DNA of 60,531 nt from Bacteroidia bacterium (GTDB lineage Bacteria; Bacteroidota; Bacteroidia; Chitinophagales; UBA2359). How positions within the stretch are numbered: the stretch's first letter is position 1; each line of letters opens with the position of its first letter. The DNA lies in assembly GCA_030427245.1 (NCBI GenBank), contig JAUHXA010000045.1:1-60531 (forward strand), in the 5' to 3' direction. Below are positions 5,323 to 57,900 of this stretch, in pieces. A program made the position numbers and the translations under genes. The notes under the pieces are model-generated. The model saw only the letters and a program-made list of their open reading frames with translations, was not told the DNA's origin and did not search any database.

Positions 5323-6198
5323 CTATTCTCCTAATTCTTTCATACGCTCCATTCTTGCCTTCTCATTCGCCATCATCCACGGGTCTTTTGACAATTTTTC
5401 ATACGCCAATTTGAAGAAAGGGCGGGCTTTGTCCGTATCCTTCAAAGTCCAAAAACACTCTGCAATTTCTTCCCAAATATAGCCCGATGAATCTACCCCT
5501 TCTGCCTCTTGTAGTGCTTTTTGTTGTAGTTTCAAGGCTTCTTCTACTCTCCCTAAAGAACGGTAAGTTTTGGCGATACACCATTTAGCGATACCAATAC
5601 TTCGCTCATTGCCATGCTCTTTCTGCCATTCCAAGGCTTTTTCAAACATCTCTAAGGCTTTTTCGTACTCTTTTTTGTCGTGATAAGACCAACCCATATT
5701 GTTGTAAAGTGAGCCCAACCACAATTTTGCCCTTTTATCCTCTGATTTCTCCGCCAAAGCCACCGCCATTTCTTCCCACTTCAACTTTTCTTGGGGACGA
5801 GCCATTTCTGCGTAAGCCACCATGTGTAGAGCATCAACGGCATAGTAATCTTCACCTACCGATTCTGCCAATTGCCAAGCCTCTTTAAACAAGGGTATTG
5901 CTTTGGCTTGCTGTTGAGAAGAATTGAAGGCACGCCCTCTTTCGAGTAAATAGCGAACTTTGATTCTGTGTTCACCTGTATGATTTTGAAGCCATTCCTC
6001 CACACCATTTAGGGTTTCATGCGCTGCTTCAAAATTGCGCTGTAAACCTTGTGTACGAGCAATTTGAGTCAACAATTCAGCCTTGTAGGTTTCATTTTTT
6101 AAAGCCTCAGCTTGTGGCAACAATTCACGAAATTTTTCTTCTGTTTCTTTGGGATTACCAAAGTTCCAAAGTTTATTAAAATCAGGAAGTCCTTGCAT
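5323..6198 (-). CDS. Tetratricopeptide repeat protein, cytoplasmic
   Basis: A 291-residue protein made almost entirely of TPR-like helical hairpins. Clear units include ALEMFEKALEWQKEHGNERS and AKTYRSLGRVEEALKLQQKA in the second half. There is no signal peptide or membrane segment, so it is probably a cytoplasmic scaffold or protein-binding module. The partner and pathway are unknown. It is monocistronic as far as can be seen: a terminator hairpin follows it, and the upstream gene (6453-6821) is separated by about 250 bases containing another hairpin. Confidence 0.75.
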   Translation of the reverse strand: MQGLPDFNKLWNFGNPKETEEKFRELLPQAEALKNETYKAELLTQIARTQGLQRNFEAAHETLNGVEEWLQNHTGEHRIKVRYLLERGRAFNSSQQQAKAIPLFKEAWQLAESVGEDYYAVDALHMVAYAEMARPQEKLKWEEMAVALAEKSEDKRAKLWLGSLYNNMGWSYHDKKEYEKALEMFEKALEWQKEHGNERSIGIAKWCIAKTYRSLGRVEEALKLQQKALQEAEGVDSSGYIWEEIAECFWTLKDTDKARPFFKLAYEKLSKDPWMMANEKARMERMKELGE

Positions 6199-7034: not shown

Positions 7035-7411
7035 ATGGCGAAGAAAGGAGGGTTATTTCAGTTGATTGCTGCAATGAGCAAAGCCGAGAAACGACATTTT
7101 CGGCAATATGCAAAGGCAAACAGTTTGTCTTCTAATTATCTGGATTTGTTTGAAGCAATTGAAGGACAGAAAAGGTATGATGAAAAAACAATCAAGCTGC
7201 AATTCAAGGGTAAAGCCTTTGTGCGTCAATTGCATGTCACCAAAAACTACCTACAAAACTTCCTCCTCAAAAGCCTTAGAGCCTTTCACCAAAAACCTTC
7301 AAAAGATGCAGAGTTGAAGGATTTACTGCGGGATGTGGAATGGATGTTTGCCAAAGGTTTACATCATCACTGTCATTACGCTTTGGAGAAGGCAGAAAAA
7401 ATAGCGAGGGT
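7035..7411 (+). pseudogene. 5' part of a conserved gene interrupted by an IS607-family element
   Basis: Encodes the first 125 codons of an alpha-helical protein beginning MAKKGGLFQLIAAMSKAEKR. Past 7411 the frame runs into the insertion and picks up 12 element-derived codons (KNNRSKNSIIL and neighbours) before a stop at 7448. Joining GGT at 7409-7411 to the base after GGT at 9271-9273 restores one uninterrupted 488-codon frame through the junction, reading ARV-YELYTG. Function is unknown. The long helical, TPR-like C-terminal part and the conserved SKAEKRHF start resemble a family of Bacteroidota hypotheticals; I do not recognise a characterised member. Confidence 0.85.
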
Positions 7412-7444
7412 AAAAAATAATCGTTCAAAAAATAGTATTATATT

Positions 7445-7466
7445 ATAAAATACAGTATTTTTGAGC
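7445..7466. repeat. Left-end subterminal palindromic motif of the IS607 element
   Basis: Contains AAAATACAGTATTTT (7447-7461), a perfect 15-bp palindrome with 7-bp arms. The same ATAAAATAC...TATTTTT motif occurs at the right end (9247-9270). It overlaps the probable tnpA promoter region and ends one base before the tnpA ATG. A recombinase-binding role is inferred from the matching copies at both ends. Confidence 0.6.
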
Positions 7467-8036
7467 ATGAAATTATCCAAATGGGCAGACCTTCAAGGCA
7501 TTACTTATCAAGCTGCATGGAAACAATTCAAGGCAGGCAAAATTTCGGGAGCTTATCAATTGGAAACAGGTACGATTATCGTTCCTAAGCAGCCCTCTAC
7601 TTTCAAGCCCGATAAAAATGTTGTCTATGTTCGGGTATCTTCCCATGGTCAAAAAACAGATTTGAAACGACAAGAAGAACGTTTATTGGCTTTCTGTGCT
7701 GCTCGTGGGTGGATTGTTCATAGAGTGGTTAGAGAAATAGCTAGTGGATTGAACGACAAACGCCCCAAACTTGAAAAAGTGCTTTTAGATGAAAGTGTAG
7801 GGCGAATTATAGTAGAACACAAAGATAGATTTGCTCGTTTTGGAACATATTACATAGAGAAGTTATTACAATTGCAAGGTAGAGAATTAGTTATCATCAA
7901 TGAAGCAACTGAAGACAAAGAAGATTTGATGCAAGATTTTGTAAGTATCATTACTTCCTTTGTTGCAAGAATATATGGACAAAGAAGAAGCAAAAGAAAA
8001 AAGGCAGCTATTTTAAAAGTGTTGGAAGAAGAATGA
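7467..8036 (+). CDS. tnpA: IS607-family serine recombinase (transposase TnpA)
   Basis: A 189-residue recombinase with an N-terminal MerR-like helix-turn-helix (residues about 1-40) followed by a resolvase catalytic domain with YVRVSSHGQ; Ser58 is the likely nucleophile and Arg56 is conserved. It cuts and exchanges strands at GG dinucleotides in this family, which matches the GGT shared by both junctions. An in-frame TTG lies two codons upstream, but ATG 7467 gives the usual MKLSKWAD start. The stop overlaps the tnpB ATG by four bases, so the two genes are probably translationally coupled. No frameshift or missing motif is seen. Confidence 0.95.
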   Translation: MKLSKWADLQGITYQAAWKQFKAGKISGAYQLETGTIIVPKQPSTFKPDKNVVYVRVSSHGQKTDLKRQEERLLAFCAARGWIVHRVVREIASGLNDKRPKLEKVLLDESVGRIIVEHKDRFARFGTYYIEKLLQLQGRELVIINEATEDKEDLMQDFVSIITSFVARIYGQRRSKRKKAAILKVLEEE

Positions 8037-9241
8037 ACTTAGTCGAAAAACATATCATCCGAAAAGGACACAAGTGGTTTAGACTGTGTGATGAAATTTG
8101 CTTTCTTTGCAAAAACCTCTACAACTTCGTTCTTTATGAAAATCGGCAACACTATATCGCCACAGGAAAAATTTACTCTATGAAGGAGTTTTTCAAAATG
8201 TTGCGAAAAACCAATCAGCCCGATTTTAGAGCGTTGCCCAGTCAAGTAGCCAAGGAAGTGGTTCGGCTTCACTACAAAAACTGGTTGTCCTTTTTTGCTG
8301 CCATGAAAAGCTACGGAAAAGACCTCTCCAAATTTACAGGCAGACCTCGACTTCCTAAATACAAAAAACGAAATAAAGACACCAAATACGGCAGATTCAT
8401 CGCTTGTTATTATTTTCCCGAAGCCATCAGCCGAAAAGCTATGCGAGCAGGAATTATCAAACTGACATCCATTGGTATTCAGATAGATAGCCGAGGCAGA
8501 AAGGTCAAGATGGTTCGTATTGTCCCTAAGTATGGTCGGTATATCATTGAAGTGGTCTATGAAGTAGAAATCCCGCCAATTCAAACAACCAATCACAAAG
8601 AAGCTGCCATTGACTTAGGTGTCAATAATTTAGCGACTGTAGTTTTCAACACAGGAGACTCTCCTATGATAGTCAATGGCAGACCCTTGAAGTCTATTAA
8701 TCAATACTTCAACAAAACAAAAGCCAAATTGATGTCTTATGTGGGGGGCAAAGCACACTCCAAAAGACTTGAAAAATTACACCACAATAGAGACAACAAA
8801 GTAAGTGATTATTTGCACAAACACAGCACTTTACTGATGAACTATCTCGCTTCAAAAGAGATTACCAAAGTCTATGTTGGTAAGAATCAAGGATGGAAGC
8901 AAAGCATCAAAATTGGCAAACGCAATAATCAAAATTTTGTAAGCATCCCTTTTGACAAATTTATTCAGATGCTCATTTACAAAGGTAAAATGAAGGGGAT
9001 TGAAGTAGTTTGTATGGAAGAAAGTTATACTTCTAAATGCAGTTGTTTGGATGGAGAATCTGTCAGAAAACATCTGTTTTACAAAGGCAAGCGCATCAAA
9101 CGAGGTTTGTTTCGGTCAAACAAAGGCATCCTTATCAATGCGGATGTAAATGCAGCTTATAATATAGGTAGAAAAAGTAATCCTGAATTTCTTGACAGGA
9201 TAGAGGCACTGCCGTTAGTGCCATGTAGGTTAGTAGCCTAA
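8033..9241 (+). CDS. tnpB: TnpB, IS607-associated RNA-guided nuclease
   Basis: A 402-residue TnpB. Proteins of this family bind an omega RNA made from the element's right end and cut DNA matching the guide. The RuvC-like Asp194 (AAIDLGVNNLA) and Asp371 (NADVNAAYNI) are present. At the usual RuvC-II glutamate position the protein has VYVGKNQGW, and the nearest acidic candidates are Glu329/Glu330 in MEESYTSK, suggesting a rearranged catalytic site. The zinc-finger region has only a single C-S-C (residues 336-338) and no second cysteine pair. Its 3' coding end overlaps three hairpins that probably belong to the omega RNA. It is full length and appears intact. Confidence 0.92.
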   Translation: MNLVEKHIIRKGHKWFRLCDEICFLCKNLYNFVLYENRQHYIATGKIYSMKEFFKMLRKTNQPDFRALPSQVAKEVVRLHYKNWLSFFAAMKSYGKDLSKFTGRPRLPKYKKRNKDTKYGRFIACYYFPEAISRKAMRAGIIKLTSIGIQIDSRGRKVKMVRIVPKYGRYIIEVVYEVEIPPIQTTNHKEAAIDLGVNNLATVVFNTGDSPMIVNGRPLKSINQYFNKTKAKLMSYVGGKAHSKRLEKLHHNRDNKVSDYLHKHSTLLMNYLASKEITKVYVGKNQGWKQSIKIGKRNNQNFVSIPFDKFIQMLIYKGKMKGIEVVCMEESYTSKCSCLDGESVRKHLFYKGKRIKRGLFRSNKGILINADVNAAYNIGRKSNPEFLDRIEALPLVPCRLVA

Positions 9242-9270
9242 CGAAAATAAAATACTATATTTTTTAGAAC
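9100..9270 (+). ncRNA. Probable omega RNA (reRNA) of TnpB
   Basis: The last 60 bases of tnpB hold three successive hairpins: TCCTG/CAGGA (9181-9185 with 9196-9200), GGCACT/AGTGCC (9205-9210 with 9217-9222) and TAGGT/GCCTA (9226-9230 with 9236-9240). They are followed by an A/T-rich tail to the element boundary. By analogy with characterised TnpB systems the transcript would continue into the host flank, so the guide would begin at about 9273 in the interrupted gene. The 5' limit given is approximate, and no expression evidence is available. Confidence 0.6.
9247..9270. repeat. Right-end motif of the IS607 element
   Basis: ATAAAATACTATATTTTTTA is close to the left-end motif at 7445-7466 (ATAAAATACAGTATTTTTGA), and its reverse complement resembles AAAAAATAGTATT at 7427-7439. 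It lies immediately left of the GGT junction. It is probably a recombinase recognition sequence and may also be the 3' scaffold boundary of the omega RNA. Confidence 0.55.
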
Positions 9271-9273
9271 GGT

Positions 9274-10363
9274 TTACGAATTGTACACAGGTTTATTAGA
9301 GGTGTTGACTTGGAAGCGAAGATTGTTGTTGGTGCGTTTGGGCAATGAAAAAAGTAAGGAGGCAGTAACGGAGATTTTGAAGGAAGAAAAGGAAGTATTG
9401 AAGCAGTTGACAGATTTAAATGAATATTGGTCTATCACCTATCATGTCATTGACCTTTTTCAAGATGAAACGAAAAGGATGGCTACGGAGAATCATCCTT
9501 TGCTGAACACACCTCCCGAACCGAATCAAATTCATGCAGTGACTTTACACTATCACATTCTGTATGTGTGGAATATATTGAATGGAAAAGGCGAGCAGGC
9601 AGCAAAATATTTGGAGCGCTTGATTGAATTGTTGGAAAAACGACCTGAAAGGATACAAGACGAACCAAATGCCTATATGACCGCTTTGGGTAATAAAATT
9701 GGGATGCTGCTGCAAACCCGTCAATTGGAGGAAGTGCCGAGTTTGATTCGCAAAATTCGGAATGTACCAACTGACTTCAATATCAAAAACAAACAAAAAA
9801 TCAGCTTAAAGCTTTTGCTGCGTACCTACAATATTGAGCTGGAACTGTACCGAGATTCGGGACAATACGAGAAGGGCGTGGCATTGATTGAAGAAGTGAA
9901 AACCCTGATTCACAGGGAATACAAAAATATTTCGGAGGAGTATATTTTGCAGTTTTACTACCAATTTGCCTACATCTATTTCATGCAAAAGGACTACTCA
10001 AAGGCTTTGGATTGGCTGAACCGTTTGGTGAACGAATCGTTTGAGGACAGTCGAATGGATTTGCAGATTTATGCTCGACTCTTGGTATTGATGATTCATT
10101 TAGAATTGGACAACATCATCGTATTGAAGTATGCAATTGCAGCGTATCGGCGTTTTTTGAAAAAAAGGCGAAAACTGGAGGTCTTTGAAAAGATACTATT
10201 GCGCTTTTTTAGCAAAATTTGCATGGCTTTATCCTATGAACATCCTGCAATGTTTCGACAACTGTATGCGGATTTGTTTGATAGTGAGGAGGAGATTTTG
10301 ACTAGGGATCATTTGGATTACTTGGATTTTCGTGCTTGGATTGAAGGGCATTTGGAGAAGTAG
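9274..10363 (+). pseudogene. 3' part of the IS607-interrupted gene
   Basis: Carries the remaining 363 codons of the gene that starts at 7035. An in-frame TTG at 9281 could at best start a truncated 360-residue protein. The product is rich in helical repeats such as YFMQKDYSKALDWLNRLV, resembling TPR units, with no membrane segment. The reading frame is undamaged from the junction to the stop, so the insertion appears recent or the gene recoverable by precise excision. An inverted repeat and then a terminator hairpin follow. Confidence 0.85.
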
Positions 10364-45733: not shown

Positions 45734-45999
45734 TTATTCTCGCATAATCTTAGCATTGATTACTTCTCGACCGTTTGCCAATTGAAGGTGATACATACCT
45801 GAAGCATATAACGAAATATCAATTGTATGCTCATTCACACCGTTCTTAGCAGAAAGGTTTTGAGAAGCTATTAATCGTCCGTCCACACTGTGAATGGTCA
45901 ATGTAACATCTTCGTCTGCCCCGTTCATGAAGGTAAGAGTAACCCAACTATCACTTGGAATAGGACGAATATTCAACAATTTGAAGCCTGTCGCTTTTC
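45734..45999 (-). other. T9SS type A C-terminal sorting domain
   Basis: The last 88 residues (starting KATGFKLLNIRPIPS) fit the type IX sorting domain: the GFKLLNIRPIPSDSWVTLTF strand pair, VDGRLIASQNLSAKNGVNEH, the SLYASGMYHLQLANG motif and a final short strand ending KIMRE. In this family the domain directs export through the outer membrane and is removed on delivery. Confidence 0.88.
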
Positions 46000-48900
46000 T
46001 AAACAATGTAATGACACTGTAAGGAGAACGTTTACCATCAAAGTCGGTTTGACTCAAACGATAATAACTCAATCCCATCGGTGCATTCTCATGCAAGAAG
46101 TCGTAAGCATGGACTTCGCTCGTTGTTCCTTGACCATCTACTTTAGTAATTGGCTCATAGTTCTCTCCGTCCAATGAATGTTCGAGTGTGAAGTAATCAT
46201 TGTTCACTTCCGAAGCTGTAATCCATTTAAGCAGATTTCCTTCCTCCAATACCTCACCCGTAAATTCAATCAATTCAACAGGCAATGTCGTACACAAATC
46301 GCCATCTCCGCTTATTAATTGGACGCAACCATTGGAATCCGTCACAACTACCGAATAAGTGGTAGAACTACTAAATGGTCCGAATCCTAAAATAGTGCCA
46401 TCTGGAACATCTTCGGTCAAAGTGCCTCCACTCATGATAGAATAAGGTCCTGTACCTCCACCTACAAATACGGCTACTTCGTAATTCTCACCTAAGTTGG
46501 CGCAAATCACTTCGTCGGATGCCAAATTAGGACAGTCATTACACTTACTTAAGAAAATCGCTTCAGCAGGAATTCCCAATTTAATACAATCATCGGCTTC
46601 ATCTACAATACTACCAAATGGAGCTTTTAGCAAAACAGAGGTAATGTAAATGATTTCATCCAATGGTACACCAGGGATAGAACCATCATTGAAGAATTGA
46701 CCAGATTGATTGAGTGCCAATATAGAACCAAATGGATCAAATTGGTCTGTGTAAAGCATGTAGCCTAACTCATAAGAAGTATCCAATAAGATTACTCCAA
46801 TAGCATCTGCTTGTGCACCTTCCAATGGACAAACCTCCAATGCTGCGGCTGCTTTTTGTATCAGACTAAGCGTACAGATACCAGCGCTGTTCAGACTACA
46901 AGCTAAGATGCCCGCACAATCAGGAGCAACATAATCAAAGGTGGTCGTACAACTTGCATTGTCAGAATCTGTAAATATAGCAGTTATATCCAACGTTTCA
47001 AAGGTAGTGATGTCACTAATGGTAAAACTCTGTAAACCTGTTCCATCGTATGTACCACTGCCGCTTGCTACTACCTCACCGTTGAAGTCCGTGAAAACAT
47101 AATTGAAGCCTTCAGAGCTACCTGTATCTTCATAGTCTAACAATACAGCCACACTGTAGTTTCCATTTTCATCACAGATAGTTGCAGGGAATAAACTCAC
47201 GTTCAAGTCACAGTTTGTTTCATCCTCACAAACCGTAGCTGTGTAGGTAGTCATTGCTGTACAAGAACCGTCACCTGCATCTGTTACGAGAACAGATACT
47301 TGTCCTGCGTTTGCAGTCAGTCCACTGATACTTACAGTTTGTTGTCCTGTGTTGTCATACGCAACTGTTCCCGCAGTATCCTCACCTATTTGGTAAGTAA
47401 ACTCGTCTCCTACTGTGTTTTCGTACGTCACTATCAATACAATGCTGTAAGTTCCATCCTCCGCACAAGTACTAGAGGCTATGACTTCTGCATCCAAAGT
47501 ACACTCTCCACAATCAGGAGCATTGAAGGCATCTACAACTTCATCATTACAAGTAGAATCATCGTTGTCCGCTACATTCAAGGTCACAGGTTGTCCATCG
47601 CCTTCCAAGGTAACATTTACCGTTGTTTGGTTACTGCTGTTGCTATAAGGCACACTCGTTGGAGTACTTCCATTGATGCTATAATTGAAGCCATTATTCC
47701 CCGTGTTATCGTTGTAACTTACCACAAAGGTAAGGTTGTATGTACCATCACTGTTGCAGCTTCCTGTGGTGAAACTGTTAATCGTAATAGCACAATCAGT
47801 AGATACGTCTGTGGGGCAATTCGGCGCATCGTAAGTGATATTGTCGAAGCATGTTGTCTCCAAATTGTCACTTACCAAAACCTGAATCGTGCTGCCATCG
47901 CCATCCAAATTAGACAAGGTGATAGTCTGCAAACCGCTGCCATCATAGGCCACTACTCCCATAGGAAGTGTCGAACCATTTGAATTACTTAGAGCATAAT
48001 TGAAGCCTGTACCAAACACGTTGTCATACGAAACGATTAAAGTAACATCATAAGTATCGTCGGTTTCACAAAGCCCAACTACTGCACTTACATCTATGCT
48101 ACAATTTGTAACATCATCGCAGTCTGGAGCAGTGTAAGTCACTTCGCTACTACAAGCAGGATTGTCTGTATCAAAAACTTCAACAGTAATCAGCTCCCCA
48201 TCTCCTACCAATTCATCTACCTTAATGGTTTGTTGTCCAGTGCCATCGTAATCAACTGTACCTTCTACCTCTCCATCTACTGTATAAGTGAAACTCGTGC
48301 CTGTGACATTTTCGTAATCAACAATTATCAAAGCACCATAAGTATTATCAACACCACAATCTTCGTCAGGAATAACGGTAACATTGATATCACATTCATC
48401 TTCTCCCACATCACAGGTTGGACGAGTCACAATAAATGATCTGTCACAGGATTGCTGCACCAAATCATAAGCGTGAATAAAAATAGCAGGGCCTTCAAGA
48501 GGTAGATCATTGATTAGTATTACCTGAACACCCGATCCATCATACATAACATGATTTGGAGAACCTCCATCTAATGTATATTCAAATCCAGCATTACCTA
48601 CATTTTGATAAGTCACTACAAGTGCCATATCAAAAGTACCATCTCCATTACAGAACCGTTGAGCAACTAATTTGATATTACATTCACCCGTACAGTCAGG
48701 GGTCAAGAAAGCGGCATCAGCACTACAATCTGGATTTGCGGAATCACTTACTTCAATGTTCATTGCAGTTCCATTTCCTACCAAATTGGGTATTGTCACT
48801 GATTGGAAACCGCTGCCATCGTACTCTACAAAAACTTTTCCGCCATTGTTCACGCTGTAATTAAAGCCCAAACCGTCAGGATTTTCGTAGGTAATTTCTA

Positions 48901-51900
48901 TGGTTACGTCAAAATTACCATCTTCACAATCACCTATCACGGTATTCATAGATAGACTACAAGGATTTGCTTCTTCTTCACAGTCAGGAGCAGTATAATT
49001 GACCGTTTCAGAACAGTCTGGGAATTGAATATCATTGACTTCAATCGTTTGGTTCAAAGAACCATCTCCTGTTAGACCTTCTACTATAATAGTTTGAGAG
49101 CCAGAGCCGTTGTACATTACGGTTGTTGGAGTACTTCCTTCAATACTGTATTCAAATCCACTGCTACCTGTTGCACCATTGTAATTTACCAAGAAACTCA
49201 AGTTATAAGTCCCATCGTCTTGACATTCTGTTGTCACATTATTGCTATTCACGATAAGGTTACACAATTCGCAGTCAGGGGCAGTAACTACTGTAGAAGA
49301 GCCACAACCGGGGTTGATTGCATCGCTTACTGCAACATTAAATGTAGAACCATTGCCAATCATTCCTTCCACCAAAATGGTTTGGAATCCACTGCCATCA
49401 TAATCTACGCTTACTGCAGAACCTCCATTAATACTATAGTTGAAACCAGAGCTACCAACCAAGTTGTTGTAAATCACATTCAACTCAAGTGTATAAGTGC
49501 CATCACCTAAACAAGTTTCCTCAGATGCAGTAGCCAAAACATTCAGTGTACAACTTTCACAAATAGCAGAAGCAAAGGCTAAACTTGCGCCATCACAATC
49601 ATCAAACTGAGCGTCTGTGACTTCAATGTTGATATCAGAACCATCCCCAATCATATTTTCAAGGACGAGTGTTTGAACTCCAATGGCGCTTGTATAAGGT
49701 ACATTGACTGCTACACCACCATTGATAACATAATTGAAGCCTAAGCTACCTACGTTGTCGTTGTAGCTGACTGAAAAAGTAATGGTGTTCGTACCGTCGG
49801 ATTGACAGTCTTGAGATACCAGTGCTATGTTGAGGTTACAAGCTGGACAGGAAGGTGCAGTATAGCTCGTGCTAGCATTACAAGAAGTATTTTCTACATC
49901 TTCAACTACCACATTAACTACGCTTCCGTCACCCTCCAAACCATTGACTTCTACAGTCTGCGAACCAGTACCATCATAAGATACATTGGTAGATGTACCA
50001 CCATTAATGGTATAATTAAAACCCTGTGCTCCTGCTGTATCATCGTACGTAACTGTCAAAGTAACACTGTAGGTATTATCTGGTTGGCAAGCAATTGCTG
50101 CCGACTCTACGTTTGCAGAAACATCTAAACCACATAAAACAGGACAATCAGATGCTGTAAAAGTTGTTGTTGCGGTACAGCTTGTATTAGCATTGTCAGT
50201 CACAACTATAGTGACATCATTGCCATCACCTACCAAGCCTTCAATGGTTACGGTTTGTGAGCCTGTTCCGTTATAGAATACATTCACTGGTGTACTTCCA
50301 TTGACACTATAAGTGAAACCTGTTGAAGTAAGTGTATTACTATAAGTCACTTCTAAGGCTACATCAAATGTTCCATTCGCTTCACAAGCCAAAGAAGTAG
50401 TTGATAAACTCAAATTACAAACACCACAAGTAGGTTTGTCGAAATCAACTGAATCTCCCGCACAACTTGTTATGCTTGCATCTTCTACTGCAATGTTTAC
50501 AGTTGCACCATCCCCTATCAATCCCGTAACCGTTACAGTTTGTTGTCCCGTACCATTATAAGCTACATTGACAGGAGCATTAGTTCCAATGGTATAATTG
50601 AAACCTCCATCACCTACAAGGTCATTGTAAGAAACTTCAAAAGTTAGGGTAAACGTACCATCGCTGTTACAATTGGTAGTGAAAGAGTCTGGAACTATCT
50701 GAACCGAACAAGTATCACAGATTGGGGCATCAAAGCTCACAAAACCTGTACTACAAGCAGGATCTCCTACATCAACTGCTTCAATACTCATCATTCCACC
50801 ATTTCCTTCTAAGCCTGTCACGACTACAGTTTGCTCACCGCTGCCGTCATAAGCCACAGTTGTTGAAGGCCCGCCATTGATGCTATAACTAAATCCCTGT
50901 GTGCCTACCAAATCATTGTAAATCAGAATGAAGGTAAGCGTATAAGTTCCATCTTCTTGACATTCGGTAGTGATATCGTTTGCTTCAATACTTAAAGTAC
51001 ACAATTCACAAACAGGGGATTGGTAATTCACGACCCCACTTGTGCAAGTAGCATCGTCTGCATCTATCACTTCAATAGTTGCCAAGCTGCCATTGCCAAT
51101 CAATCCGCCTACGGTTATGGTTTGTGAGCCAGAACCATTATAAGCTACATTGACAGGTGTTCCACCATTGAGGCTATAATTGAAGCCGTTAGTACCTACC
51201 AAATCATTGTAAGTAACAGTGAAAGTTACGTCATATGTTCCGCTTCCATTACATTCTGTAACAATATCGGGAACTGCTACGACTATACCACAAGTATCGC
51301 AAATAGGTGCAGTAAATGTGGCAACGTCTCCGTCACACTCTGTCAAGTTTGCATCGTTTACTTCAATGATAATGTCATTGCCGTCGCCCAATAAACCTGT
51401 TACGACTACTGTTTGAGAGCCTGTATCATCATAAGCGACACTTGTATTGTTTTGTCCATTGATGCTGTAAGCGAATCCATTGTTACCAACATTGACATTG
51501 TAGTTTACTGTAAATGTGAGGTCATAAGTACCGTCGTCATTACAGCTTGCAGTAATGTCACTGCCAATGTTTACATCACAAGCAGGGCAAAGAGGAGCTT
51601 CAAAACTGCTTGAAGCTGCACAGTCTGCATTATCGGCATCCGTGACTGTCACATTCAAAGGCTCTCCTGTGCCTTCAATACCATCTACCGTAATCGTCTG
51701 ACTGCCAGAACCATTGTAGGACACATTGACCGCACTACTCGTGCCAATGGTATAATTGAAGCCATTGTCACCAATATTATCACCATAGGTGACTGTAAAG
51801 GTAAGAGAGAAAGTATCATCTGCTTCACAAGTACCTACTATATCAATATCTGTATCCAAATCACAAATAACATTACATACCTGTGAAGTGTAAGTCGATG

Positions 51901-54900
51901 TTGCAGTACAGTTATTATTCAATACGTCAGTTACATCAATTGTTACTTCTGAACCATCGCCTACAAGATTTTCAATGGTCAATGTTTGCTGACCACTTCC
52001 ATTGTAATTGACTGTTGTTGGAGTTCCACCATTGACAGAATACGTGAATCCTGAAGAACCTGCTGTATTGCTGTATGTGACAACCAATGCTAAATCATAA
52101 GTGCCATCTCCTTGGCAAACTCCTTGACTTGCATTGATAGTTATATCACACAAGGGGCAGGTAGGTGCTACGAAACTCGTACTACCACTACAACTTGGAT
52201 TTTCAACATCATTGATGACGATAGAAGTCGTTGTACCGTTTCCGTTTAGATTATTTACAGTCACAGTTTGAGAACCTGAACCATCATAAGCGACAGTCGT
52301 TGCAGCACTGCCATTGATGCTGTATGTAAAGCCTTCGTCACCTACCAAATCGTTGTAATCAACTGTGAAACTCAAATTGTAGGTTCCATCGCTATTACAA
52401 TCTGCTGAAGTAGGAGAGGCACTTACAGTCACATTGCATAGTGGACAAGTTGGAGCGGGATAACTCACTGAGCCACTTCCACAAGATGGGAATTGTGCAT
52501 CTGTCACTTGTACAGTGCCGTTTCCACCATTTCCAGCCAAGCCTGTTACGGTCACTGTCTGTGAACCTGAACCATTATAGGGAACATTGACTTGTGTGCC
52601 ACCATTGACCATGTAATTGAAGCCAGCGCTACCTGTTGCGGCATTGTAATTGACTGTAAAGGTCAAATTATACGTACCATCTGATTGGCAATTGCTGTTA
52701 ATACCCGATACACTTAATGCACAAGTTGGGCAATTAGGAGCAGAATAGTTGACTGTTCCACTTGAACAACCTATTGGCATATCTGCATCATTCACCGAAA
52801 TTGTTGAAGCTGCACCATTTCCATTCAATCCTGTGACTGTGACTGTCTGTGATCCACTTCCATTGTAAGCAACGTTTACGGCTGTTCCACCATTGATGCT
52901 GTAATTGAAGCCATTGTCTCCTACAGTTGAATTGTAGTTCACTGTGAAACTGAGGTTGTAAGTGCCATCAAATTGGCAAGTACTATTGACACCAGATACA
53001 CTGATTGAACATGGTGGGCAAAGTGGAGTTGTGTAATCTGCACTTGCATTACAGATATCAGCATTTTCAGCATCCGATACTGAAACGGTTGAGTTCTCAC
53101 CATCCGAAGTCAATCCTGTTATCTGTACAACTTGCAAACCACTACCATTATATGCCTCATTGAATATTGCACCACCATCAATGCTATAATTGAAGCCTTG
53201 TGTACCTACCACATTCGGATCATAAGATACTGTCAAATTAATCGTATGGGTATCATCGGATTGACAAGCATTTCCACCTGTTTGCATCACACTAACAGAA
53301 GCATCAAAATCACATAGATTGGGGCATACTTGAGAGGTATAAGTTTGGGTTGCGGTACATCCGCTGTTTGCTTGATCGGTTACAACCACTGTTACACTGT
53401 TGCCATCACCTATCAAGTTAGGTACGCTTACTGTTTGTGAACCATTACCATTATAAGCAACGTTCACGGCTGTTCCACCATTGATACTGTATGAGAATCC
53501 ATTGGAGGAAAGTGTATTACTGTATGTTACATTCAACAACAAGTTGTACGTACCATTTCCTTGACAAGCTTGTTGGGTAGCAGTAAAGCTAATGTTACAA
53601 ATTGGGCAGTTAGGAGCAGTAAAACTATAACTGTCGCTGCAATTAGCATCGTCTGCATCTTCAATGTCAATCGTTACGCTGGTGCCATCGCCTGTTAAAT
53701 CGGGAACAGTTACCGTTTGTGAACCACTTCCATTGTAAGCTACATTGACAAATGTTCCGCCATTGATGCTGTAATTGAAGCCATTTGTACCCACCAAGTC
53801 ATTGTAATTAACGGTAAATGTCAAATCGTAGGTACCATCACTTGCACATACTGTTTCTACACTATTCGTATCTATTGTGACAGTACAGAATGGACAATCG
53901 GGTTCAGTATAGGTATCGGATGCTGTACAATCTGCATCTAAGTCTAATACACTCACTGAGCCGTTTACACCTCCACTTGAAGTCGCTGTTACGGTGATTA
54001 CTGTTGAAGTACTTGCCAAATTGTAGTCAAATGTTCCAATTATTTCGCCATTTACAGTCAATTCAAAGCCTTGACTGTCTGCACCCAAAACATCTAATAC
54101 TTCCGGATTATTCACTGTTACTTGTAAATCATAGGTATTGGTTGTTCCATCACAATCGCTCGTTGGCTCTGCGCTTACTCCAAAATTGTCACAGGATGTT
54201 CCAAAACAAACCAATGGTTCTACAAAAGTACTACTGGCGTTACAATCCCCATCTAAATCAGTAGCTTCAATCGTACCTGTTAGTCCGCCTGTTGCGTCAA
54301 ATTCTACTCCTTCAATGGTTACACTTGTTACTGCTCCTGCAATACCAGTGTAATCAAAAGTTCCTACCGAAATGCCGTTGATTAGCAATTCAAATCCTTG
54401 GGCATCACTACCTAATAAGTCCAACAAGTTTGGATTGGTCACCAACACTTCCAAATCGTAGGTATTGATGGCTGTGCCACAAGTAATCGTTCCTGCAGCT
54501 ACTGCAAACCCTGTACAATCTAAATCCAAACATGCAATTGGCTCGATATAAGTGCTATTCACGGTACATTCTTCGTCCAAATCGGTTGCCTGTACAGTGC
54601 CTGTTAAACCACCATTAGAATCATAAGGGACATCTTCGACTGTAACTGTCGTGAATGCTCCTGCATCTCCCTGATAATCAAAAGTACCATAAGAGGTGCC
54701 ATTGACAAAAATTTCAAATCCTTGTGCATTACTGCCCAATAAATCAACCAAATCTGGGTTGGTCACTACTACTTCTAAGTCGTAGCTGTTTACTGCATCG
54801 GCACAACCCGTTGAAGTAGCTGTCACTGCAAAACCTACACAATTTAGGTCTAAACAAGTAATCGGCTCTCCAAAAGTTGTTGAAGCAGTACAATCGGTAT

Positions 54901-57900
54901 TGTTTTGGTCTTGTATGCTGACAGTACCTGTCAAATCTCCAACTGTATCAAACGGTACATTGTTGATGGTAATAGCAGTAGTTATTCCTGCATCGTAGTC
55001 AAATATGCCATAAGAAGTTCCATTGATAGAGAGTTCGTATCCTGCTGCATCATCACCCAACAAGCCTAAGAATCCAGGGTTGGTAATGGTGATGTCGACA
55101 TTGTAAGTGTTGGTGACTGTTCCACACTCCGTAGCTGTTGCCACAACGTTGTAACCCGTACAGTCTAAGTCTAAACAAGAAATAGGTTCTAAGAAAGTAG
55201 AGTTTGCTACACAGTCACCATCTATATCTCTTACCTCAACTGTACCTGTCAACCCATTGACTTCATCGTAAGGTACATTCTCAACGGTAATAGTTGTTAA
55301 GGCGCCCGCAATACCTTCATAATCATAAGCTCCAACCAGTTCGCCATTCACGAATAATTCAAAGCCTTCTGCTTCACTACCCAATAAATCCAATAATGCG
55401 GGATTGGTGACAATCACATCTAAATTATAGGTATTGATTTCCGTACCACATTCGGTGGCTGTAGCTACAACGGCAAATCCAGTACAATCCAAATCAAAAC
55501 ATTCAATCGGTTCGATATAAGTATTGTCTGTAGTACATCCTACATCCAAATCTTCGGCTGATACCGTACCCGTCAATCCATCATTAGGGTCTGCGGCAAC
55601 ATTGACTGTTACTATTGTTGTTGAATTTAACAAGTCATAATCATAAGTTCCTAAAAGTGTTCCATTAACAGTCAATTCAAAACCTTGATTTGTTCCACCT
55701 AAAGCATCTAAAACGTCAGGGTTGGTTACAGTAACCGTCAAATCATAGGTATTGGTCGCATCATCACAATCGCCTGCTATGGCTGATACTGCAAAACCCG
55801 CACATGGATTACCGAAACAAACCAAAGGTTCTAGGAAAGTAGAGGAAACATTGCAGTCAGCATCTTGATCCACTACTTCAATCGTTCCTGTCAAGCCTCC
55901 TGCTGAATCAAATTCTACGCCTTGTACCAGCACATCTGTAATTAAGCCTGCAATACCATTGTACTCATATACACCATAAGAAATAGTGTTAATGAACAAC
56001 TCAAAGCCTTGACTGTCACTACCCAATTGATCCACCAAGTTGGGGTTCGTAACTAAGACATTGATGTCGTAAGTATTAACTTCTGTGCCACAGGTAATCG
56101 TACCTGCAACAGCCGCCAAACCTATACAGTCTAAGTCAATACAGGTAATGGGTTCGAGGTAGGTAGAATTGGCCACACAATCTCCGTCCAAATCCCTCAC
56201 TTCAATCGTTCCTGTCAAACCGCCATTGGAATCAAATACTACATTTTCGACTGTACCTATGGTCACAGAACCTGCTATACCATCGGAATATTGGAAAGTA
56301 TCAATCAATGCGCCATTGACATAAAGTTCAAAGCCTTGTGAAACTGCCAATGTTCCCAACAAATCGGGATGGGTTACAGTGTATTCTAAGTCATAAGAAT
56401 TGGGAATAGTACCACACTCCAAAGATGCTGCAACTACTGCAAAACCTGCACAATCCAAATCTAAGCAAACTACTGGTTCAACAAATGTGGAAGCAGCAGT
56501 ACAGCCACTGTCGCCATTGGCATCTTCTGCGCTAACTGTACCTGTCAAATCTCCTGCTTCATCAAAAGGAACATTGGTAAGGTTGATGGTCGTTGTTGCA
56601 CCATTGCCACCTGTATAATCATAAGTACCATAAGATGTTCCATTGACAAACAATTCAAAACCCTCTACATCTGGCCCCAATAGTCCCAAAAATCCAGGAT
56701 TGGTAACAGTTACATCCAAATTATAGGTATTTGTTGCAGTTCCACATTCGGTAGCTATGCCCACAACTGCGAAACCCAAACAATCTAAATCCAAACAAAC
56801 AATTGGTTCTACATAAGTAGAATTGGCAACACAATCACCGTCAATATCTCTAACTTCTACTGTGCCAGTCAATCCATTTACTTCATCATAAGGAACATCA
56901 GGAACTGTGATGGTAGTTAATAAACCAGCAGTTGTTCCATCGTAATCATATTCACCAATCAAATTGCCGTTGATATACAATTCAAAGCCTTGTGCATCAC
57001 TACCCAATAGGCCTAGTAAATTAGGATTGGTCACGACTACATCTACATTGTAACTATTCGCCACCGTACCACAAGTCGTAGCTGTAGCAACAACTGCGAA
57101 TCCTGTACAATCCAAATCGAAACAAGCAATAGGCTCTACATAACTCGCTCCCGCAGTACAATCTGCATCCAAATCAATTGCCATAACACTTCCTGTCAGA
57201 CCATTGGTTTCGTCAGCGGAAAGACCTGTCACAGTTACGATTGAAGCTGCTCCCACAAGGTTGTAATCGTAAGTACCTACCAGCGAATTGTTCACATACA
57301 ATTCAAAACCTTGAGAAGTTGCACCCAAGACATCCAAAATGTTTGGATTGGTAACTGTAACTACTAAATCGTAGGTATTCGTTACAGGGTTGCAATCCGT
57401 AGGAGCTCCTACTACTGCAAAGCTGCCGCACTGATTACCAAAACATGCCAAAGGTTCTAAGAAGGTAGAATTCACCGTACAATCTGCGTCTAAATCCACT
57501 ACCTCTATAGTTCCTGTTAATCCACCTGCGGAATCAAATTCAACTCCCTCAACTTCTATACTTGTTATCAAGCCTCCTACAAGACCATCGTATTCGTATG
57601 TGCCTACTGAATTGCCATTGATAAACAATTCAAATCCTTGGCTATCGCTGCCTAATTGATCCAATAAATTTGGGTTCGTCACCAATACTTGTAAGTCATA
57701 CGTATTGACTGCTGTTCCACAGGTTATTGATCCTGATACCGCTGCTAAGCCAACACAATCTAAGTCTATACACGATACAGGTTCTACATAGGTAGAGTTG
57801 GCGGAACAATCTCCGTCAATATCTCTGACTTCAATCGTTCCTGTTAATCCACCTGCTGGGTCATAAGCCACATTTTCTACTGTACCAATTGTCACCAATC

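What the first reader, a model, noticed from the sequence alone, without database searches (positions are those of the whole stretch)
7035..10363. IS607 element splits a gene, and joining the flanks at a shared GGT restores a perfect 488-codon frame
The 5' fragment ends at gcgagGGT and the 3' fragment starts after acGGT. Fusing them at GGT gives codons gcg-agg-gtt-tac-gaa-ttg, in frame with both halves and with no extra or missing base. IS607 recombinases are known to use GG dinucleotide cores, so the inferred target fits the mechanism. Both host fragments are undamaged, which points to a recent insertion or to selection for reversible disruption. The gene could be switched back on by precise excision.
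Basis: partly seen in the sequence, partly recalled or inferred. Interest (0 to 1): 0.75.

Follow-up and report, generated by a model that had tools for sequence, protein, structure and literature searches.

The report
Ordinary IS607 insertion splitting a gene
A small mobile DNA element of a known kind has jumped cleanly into one of several similar bacterial genes, which is ordinary; because these elements insert without scars the gene looks mendable, but the element's own RNA-guided cutter would probably attack any mended copy.

Summary
A 1.86-kb IS607-family element (TnpA serine recombinase, TnpB, TnpB-type RNA hairpin) interrupts a 488-codon gene of a TPR-like family with about a dozen clear paralogues in this genome. 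The frame argument alone is weak: 898 of 3696 joins tried near the two ends are in frame and open. Homologues make it strong. Of 515 distinct joined proteins, the GG/GGT join ties for best against a profile of 28 homologues and is the only one sharing a GG. When the halves are aligned separately, 16 of 16 informative homologues place them next to each other with no residue gained or lost. The mechanism is textbook: IS607 inserts at (G)GG without target duplication. The left flank ends in GAGGG, one of two published IS607 TnpB target motifs; the right flank would give the guide. A sister element in a relative sits at AAGGG inside an enoyl-CoA hydratase gene. Intact flanks therefore do not indicate selection for reversibility, and precise excision would recreate a likely TnpB target. 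No empty site is in the assembly; other collections could not be scanned for it. New member of a known kind.

The parts
7035..7411 (+). 5' host gene fragment, codons 1-125 plus two bases of codon 126; left flank ends ..GCGAGGGT
   Evidence: NCBIfam NF058569 profile positions 1-130
7404..7410 (+). left flank GCGAGGG; GAGGG equals one of two published IS607 TnpB target-adjacent motifs
   Evidence: TAMs from PMC11061315, GGG for ISXfa1 from PMC10711439
7411..9272 (+). IS607-family element (1862 bp, GG core counted once)
7432..7459 (+). left-end subterminal repeats (ATAGTATT, ACAGTATT), putative TnpA sites
   Evidence: D4, I8, I9; motif read by eye
7467..8036 (+). tnpA, IS607 serine recombinase, 189 aa
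   Evidence: NF033518 176.3 bits, cut-off 110; IS1535 TnpA 6dgb E 3.1e-30
8033..9241 (+). tnpB, RNA-guided nuclease family, 402 aa; RuvC D194 and D371, alternative Glu E329/E330, no CxxC zinc finger
   Evidence: NF040570 185.3 bits, cut-off 100; alignment A1; residues numbered by eye
9200..9222 (+). conserved omega/re-RNA-type hairpin (ATAGAGG + stem) inside the tnpB 3' end
   Evidence: 52 of 55 stem cells paired in 11 sequences, hand-aligned; 0 of 20000 shuffles reach it
9247..9267 (+). right-end subterminal repeat related to 7445-7465
   Evidence: D4, 86%
9271..9272 (+). right-junction GG core
9273..10363 (+). 3' host gene fragment; its first bases (TTTACGAATTG..) are the predicted TnpB guide
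   Evidence: guide role inferred

Best explanation
An IS607-family element inserted by TnpA-mediated crossover at the GG of a GAGGG site inside one member of a multi-copy TPR-like (distantly BT_2802-like) gene family, without a target duplication, so both halves of the gene remain exact. Shown here: element identity, the junction at protein level, restored homology, open tnpA and tnpB, a conserved RNA hairpin near the right end. Inferred: crossover at GG through a circle intermediate, TAM GAGGG, guide TTTACGAATTG.., and TnpB cutting of excised donor sites that favours retention. The insertion most likely knocks the gene out; paralogues may cushion the loss.
For: TnpA and TnpB pass curated NCBIfam cut-offs. 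The GG join ties for first of 515 against the homologue profile. 16 of 16 informative homologues give zero offset. The joined protein matches NF058569 in a single stretch, 1-487 to 1-494 of 502, at 143.3 bits, versus 69.3 and 86.7 for the halves. Published IS607 insertions are at GG with (G)GG preferred and no duplication (PMC6188088). GAGGG is a published IS607 TnpB TAM, found for 4 of 22 strains (PMC11061315). A sister element with TnpA 63% identical sits after AAGGG in a broken enoyl-CoA hydratase gene; the hydratase query, cut at the last codon before the junction, aligns from its first residue. GGG-to-first-repeat spacing is 21 nt in both (counted by eye). The RNA hairpin covaries.
Against: No empty site or close orthologue was found, so the junction is shown only at protein level. 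A second join (7405-7407 with 9268-9270) scores equally but shares no GG. Beyond the GGG that TnpA prefers anyway, the TAM match rests on two bases (GA), and the sister element has AA. The left end of the other relative, L032, shows no GG at the expected place, and I could not assign a GG left end in 11 viral-contig relatives. TnpB activity is untested and its canonical RuvC-II Glu is missing. The right-end region as a whole is not unusually stable (z -0.54).
Confidence: 0.92

Rival explanations
1. The element is a maintained reversible switch: the population keeps the gene off and on by precise excision under selection.
For: The junction is exact and both halves are open; tnpA is open and full-length against its family.
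Against: Exactness is the default for IS607. One TnpB copy is in the genome. No exact empty-site sequence is in the assembly: 7 hits at 2-3 mismatches, against 6 for the reversed control. TnpB would be expected to cut the empty site (inference). In the two relatives of the 60 genomes searched that carry a related element, it lies elsewhere.
Confidence: 0.04
2. The two ORFs were separate or already decayed genes, and the in-frame fusion is coincidental.
For: A quarter of nearby joins are in frame and open by chance (898 of 3696).
Against: In 28 of 28 homologues examined both halves match one and the same open frame (484-575 codons stop to stop, two of them running to the locus edge). The profile prefers the GG join, tied with one other. 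No stops in 488 codons.
Confidence: 0.02
3. TnpB is inactive as a nuclease or has been repurposed (TldR-like), so it does not enforce retention.
For: The RuvC-II canonical position reads VYVGKNQ without Glu and the CxxC zinc finger is absent.
Against: D194 and D371 are present, and an alternative Glu just upstream of the finger position (E329/E330) is kept in the four relatives whose translation I saw reach it (L032, L033, L034, L057). PMC10711439 describes Ealt TnpBs as a separate clade. The RNA hairpin is conserved, and tnpB overlaps tnpA.
Confidence: 0.2

Closest known systems
IS607 family (IS607, IS1535, ISC1926, ISXfa1)
   Same: Serine transposase with the catalytic domain after about 50 N-terminal residues, tnpA-tnpB overlap, GG core, (G)GG target, no target duplication, subterminal repeats
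   Different: No close copy found where I looked: TnpA below 60% in all 135 plasmid records matched (best of the 20 listed 48.9%), 62-63% in two relatives. ISfinder was not available
IS607 TnpB with GAGGG or GGG TAM (PMC11061315, PMC10711439)
   Same: GAGGG directly at the left junction; guide expected at the right flank
   Different: Only 29 nt lie between the tnpB stop and the right GG, and the RNA hairpin lies inside the tnpB frame, unlike the separate RAGATH-18-type reRNA; alternative-Glu TnpB; NF038280 only 33 bits against cut-off 350
BT_2802 family of NCBIfam (recalled by me to be RusR of B. thetaiotaomicron)
   Same: Joined protein aligns to profile positions 1-494 of 502
   Different: 143.3 bits against cut-off 550: a distant relative; function unknown here

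Membership tests
IS607 insertion sequences | IS607-type serine transposase | tested here: met
   NF033518 176.3 bits, cut-off 110; PDB 6dgb E 3.1e-30
IS607 insertion sequences | insertion at GG without target duplication | tested here: met
   Join at shared GG/GGT with no extra base; profile rank 1 of 515, tied with one non-GG join. Protein level only
IS607 insertion sequences | subterminal repeats rather than terminal inverted repeats | tested here: met
   D4 (86%), I8, I9 near both ends at different distances
IS607 insertion sequences | transposition activity through a circle | not testable with these tools
   bench or read data needed
TnpB RNA-guided nucleases | TnpB family profile | tested here: met
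   NF040570 185.3 bits, cut-off 100
TnpB RNA-guided nucleases | RuvC D-E-D triad | tested here: inconclusive
   D194 and D371 present; Glu only at the alternative position E329/E330; single-sequence fold unusable, pLDDT 35.3
TnpB RNA-guided nucleases | right-end RNA | tested here: met
   ATAGAGG hairpin, 52 of 55 cells paired in 11 hand-aligned sequences, 0 of 20000 shuffles; the 191-nt region as a whole is not unusually stable, z -0.54. Transcription not tested
RAGATH-18-associated IS607 TnpB | reRNA of the RAGATH-18 type, independent of the coding sequence | tested here: not met
   Only 29 nt between tnpB stop (9241) and right GG (9271); Rfam gave two sub-threshold hits of other families outside the element (whether the library holds a RAGATH-18 model was not checked)
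BT_2802 family | curated NCBIfam score | tested here: not met
   143.3 bits against 550

The most novel reading that the evidence does not exclude
A TnpB-enforced gene lock: precise excision recreates GAGGG plus the guide sequence, so restored copies are cut and repaired back to the interrupted allele, driving a scarless knockout of one regulator-like paralogue to fixation.
Probability: 0.15. Interest if true: 0.35.

Novelty: new member of a known kind. Interest (0 to 1): 0.2.

Why it matters
It is a clean natural example of scarless IS607 insertion in which the restored reading frame can be tested against homologues, with a GAGGG flank that agrees with a published TnpB target motif. It warns against reading intact flanks of IS607 insertions as evidence of a regulated switch.

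Tried and rejected
Counted in-frame joins: too common to be evidence alone. Looked for a second TnpB copy and an empty site in the own genome: none. Looked for close orthologues of the host gene in 60 genomes: matches at E <= 1e-20 are 20-30% identical; 19 of the 43 relatives' matches and 9 of the 16 other own-genome loci came as loci and were used. Looked for element relatives, own genome counted in each: TnpB E <= 1e-40, 3 of 60; TnpB E <= 1e-90, 1 of 395 of the class; TnpA E <= 1e-30, 3 of 149 and 2 of 395 of the phylum; TnpA E <= 1e-35, 4 of 396 of the order; these samples overlap. A 12-bp inverted match in L032 (AAAAAACCGTAT / ATACGGTTTTTT, seen by eye) was considered as terminal repeats and dropped as probably chance, untested. 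Upstream stretches of 11 of 13 viral-contig TnpA relatives (L041-L051) were printed; I could not assign a GG left end. The single-sequence AlphaFold model of TnpB was useless. Rfam gave nothing useful. An orthologue of the enoyl-CoA hydratase broken in G003 was sought in 20 genomes at E <= 1e-40: only itself. In the hairpin count (43 of 45, nine sequences) L057 was left out because table 11 stops its frame at codon 40; it and L040 were added. L031 is cut off by its contig end and has no 3' end to count.

Full report
What is there. The window carries two ORFs, 7035-7448 and 9281-10363, flanking tnpA (7467-8036) and tnpB (8033-9241) on the same strand. TnpA passes the NCBIfam IS607 transposase cut-off (176.3 bits, cut-off 110) and TnpB the guided_TnpB cut-off (185.3, cut-off 100). 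The best solved relative of TnpA is the IS1535 IS607-family transposase. TnpB has one match in its genome at E <= 1e-3.

Is the join real? The frame alone proves little: of 3696 pairs of end points tried, 898 give an open 5'-to-3' frame, and one search lists 53 such joins sharing at least two bases. Homologues decide it. I used 28 homologous ORFs: 9 of the 16 other own-genome loci and 19 of the 43 relatives' matches, those that came as loci; the two loci that are the window itself were dropped. The 5' and 3' fragments were aligned separately. In 17 of 28 the two alignments have exactly the spacing the join predicts: all 16 whose 3' alignment begins at residues 127-134, and L009, which begins at 161. 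The 11 that disagree begin at residue 142 or later, where gaps can accumulate. A profile HMM of these 28, scored against all 515 distinct proteins from the open joins, puts the GG/GGT join first at 407.1 bits, tied with one join (7405-7407 with 9268-9270) that shares no GG. It is the only join whose shared word contains GG. The joined protein matches NF058569 (BT_2802 family) in one stretch over profile positions 1-494 of 502 at 143.3 bits, below that family's cut-off of 550. TPR matches of the 3' half are below Pfam's cut-offs. The genome has 17 loci matching the 3' half at E <= 1e-3, the split one included: 13 at E <= 2e-15 and 4 weak ones at 3e-7 to 3e-4. Loss of one member may therefore be tolerated (inference).

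Why the ends fit. PMC6188088 (passages read) reports that IS607 insertions are at GG, prefer (G)GG, and leave no target duplication; PMC4058570 (passages) proposes a circle intermediate. PMC11061315 (passages) reports TAM AGGAG (18 of 22 strains) or GAGGG (4 of 22) for IS607 TnpBs. PMC10711439 (passages) reports GGG for ISXfa1 and a reRNA extending past the right end. Here the left flank ends GCGAGGG and the right junction is GAACGG followed by TTTACGAATTG. Since TnpA itself prefers GGG, the TAM agreement rests on two further bases. A relative's element (L031: TnpA 63%; TnpB 58% over residues 1-326) begins after AAGGG. It interrupts an enoyl-CoA hydratase gene: a query cut at the last codon before the junction aligns from its first residue to residue 93 onward of 3swx, so about the first third of that protein is missing on this side. 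In both elements 21 bases separate GGG from the first ATAG repeat (counted by eye). A second relative (L032) shows no GG at the corresponding place, and viral-contig relatives gave no assignable left end, so the rule is not shown for every relative.

TnpB and its RNA. A hairpin with the motif ATAGAGG (or close variants) lies in the tnpB 3' end of the window and ten homologues: 52 of 55 stem cells pair and none of 20000 shuffles reaches this (adding L057 and L040 to the nine). Stem arms were chosen and aligned by hand, and the first two pairs never vary, so support comes from pairs 3-5. The 191-nt right-end region as a whole folds no better than shuffles (z -0.54). The canonical RuvC-II glutamate position reads GKNQ; a conserved EESYTSK places a glutamate at the alternative position, as PMC10711439 describes for Ealt TnpBs. 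Whether this TnpB cuts was not testable; the structure prediction failed.

Meaning. Joining the flanks recreates GAGGG next to the sequence predicted as guide. By the published TnpB model (passages of the preprint PMC11870625), an excised site would be cut and repaired from an interrupted copy. This argues for retention rather than a switch, but it is inference. No read data were available, so the date of insertion and any mixed population stay open. Host gene function is unknown. RusR, which I recall to be BT2802, is described in PMC12596196 (passages) as a regulator of ribose scavenging in B. thetaiotaomicron.

Noticed in passing
G003:C223 (L031 about 340-860): A sister IS607 element interrupts an enoyl-CoA hydratase gene right after AAGGG; the contig ends inside its tnpB.
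   Followed up: partly
window:7035-10363 and 16 further loci of the own genome: The interrupted gene belongs to a family with 13 clear and 4 weak loci in this genome, distant relatives of the BT_2802 family.
   Followed up: partly
L057:1501-2706: TnpB relative of Prevotella phage Lak-A1 reads through only with TAG as glutamine (4 TAG codons inside the frame).
   Followed up: partly
G531:C1:1662156 and 1607194: Two TnpA relatives of equal score, each with one in-frame TAG.
   Followed up: no
45734-60520, minus strand: A 4928-codon ORF reaches nearly to the end of the window.
   Followed up: no
5323-6198, minus strand: Another TPR protein gene (TPR_12 E 2.6e-22) lies upstream of the interrupted gene; not compared with it.
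   Followed up: no
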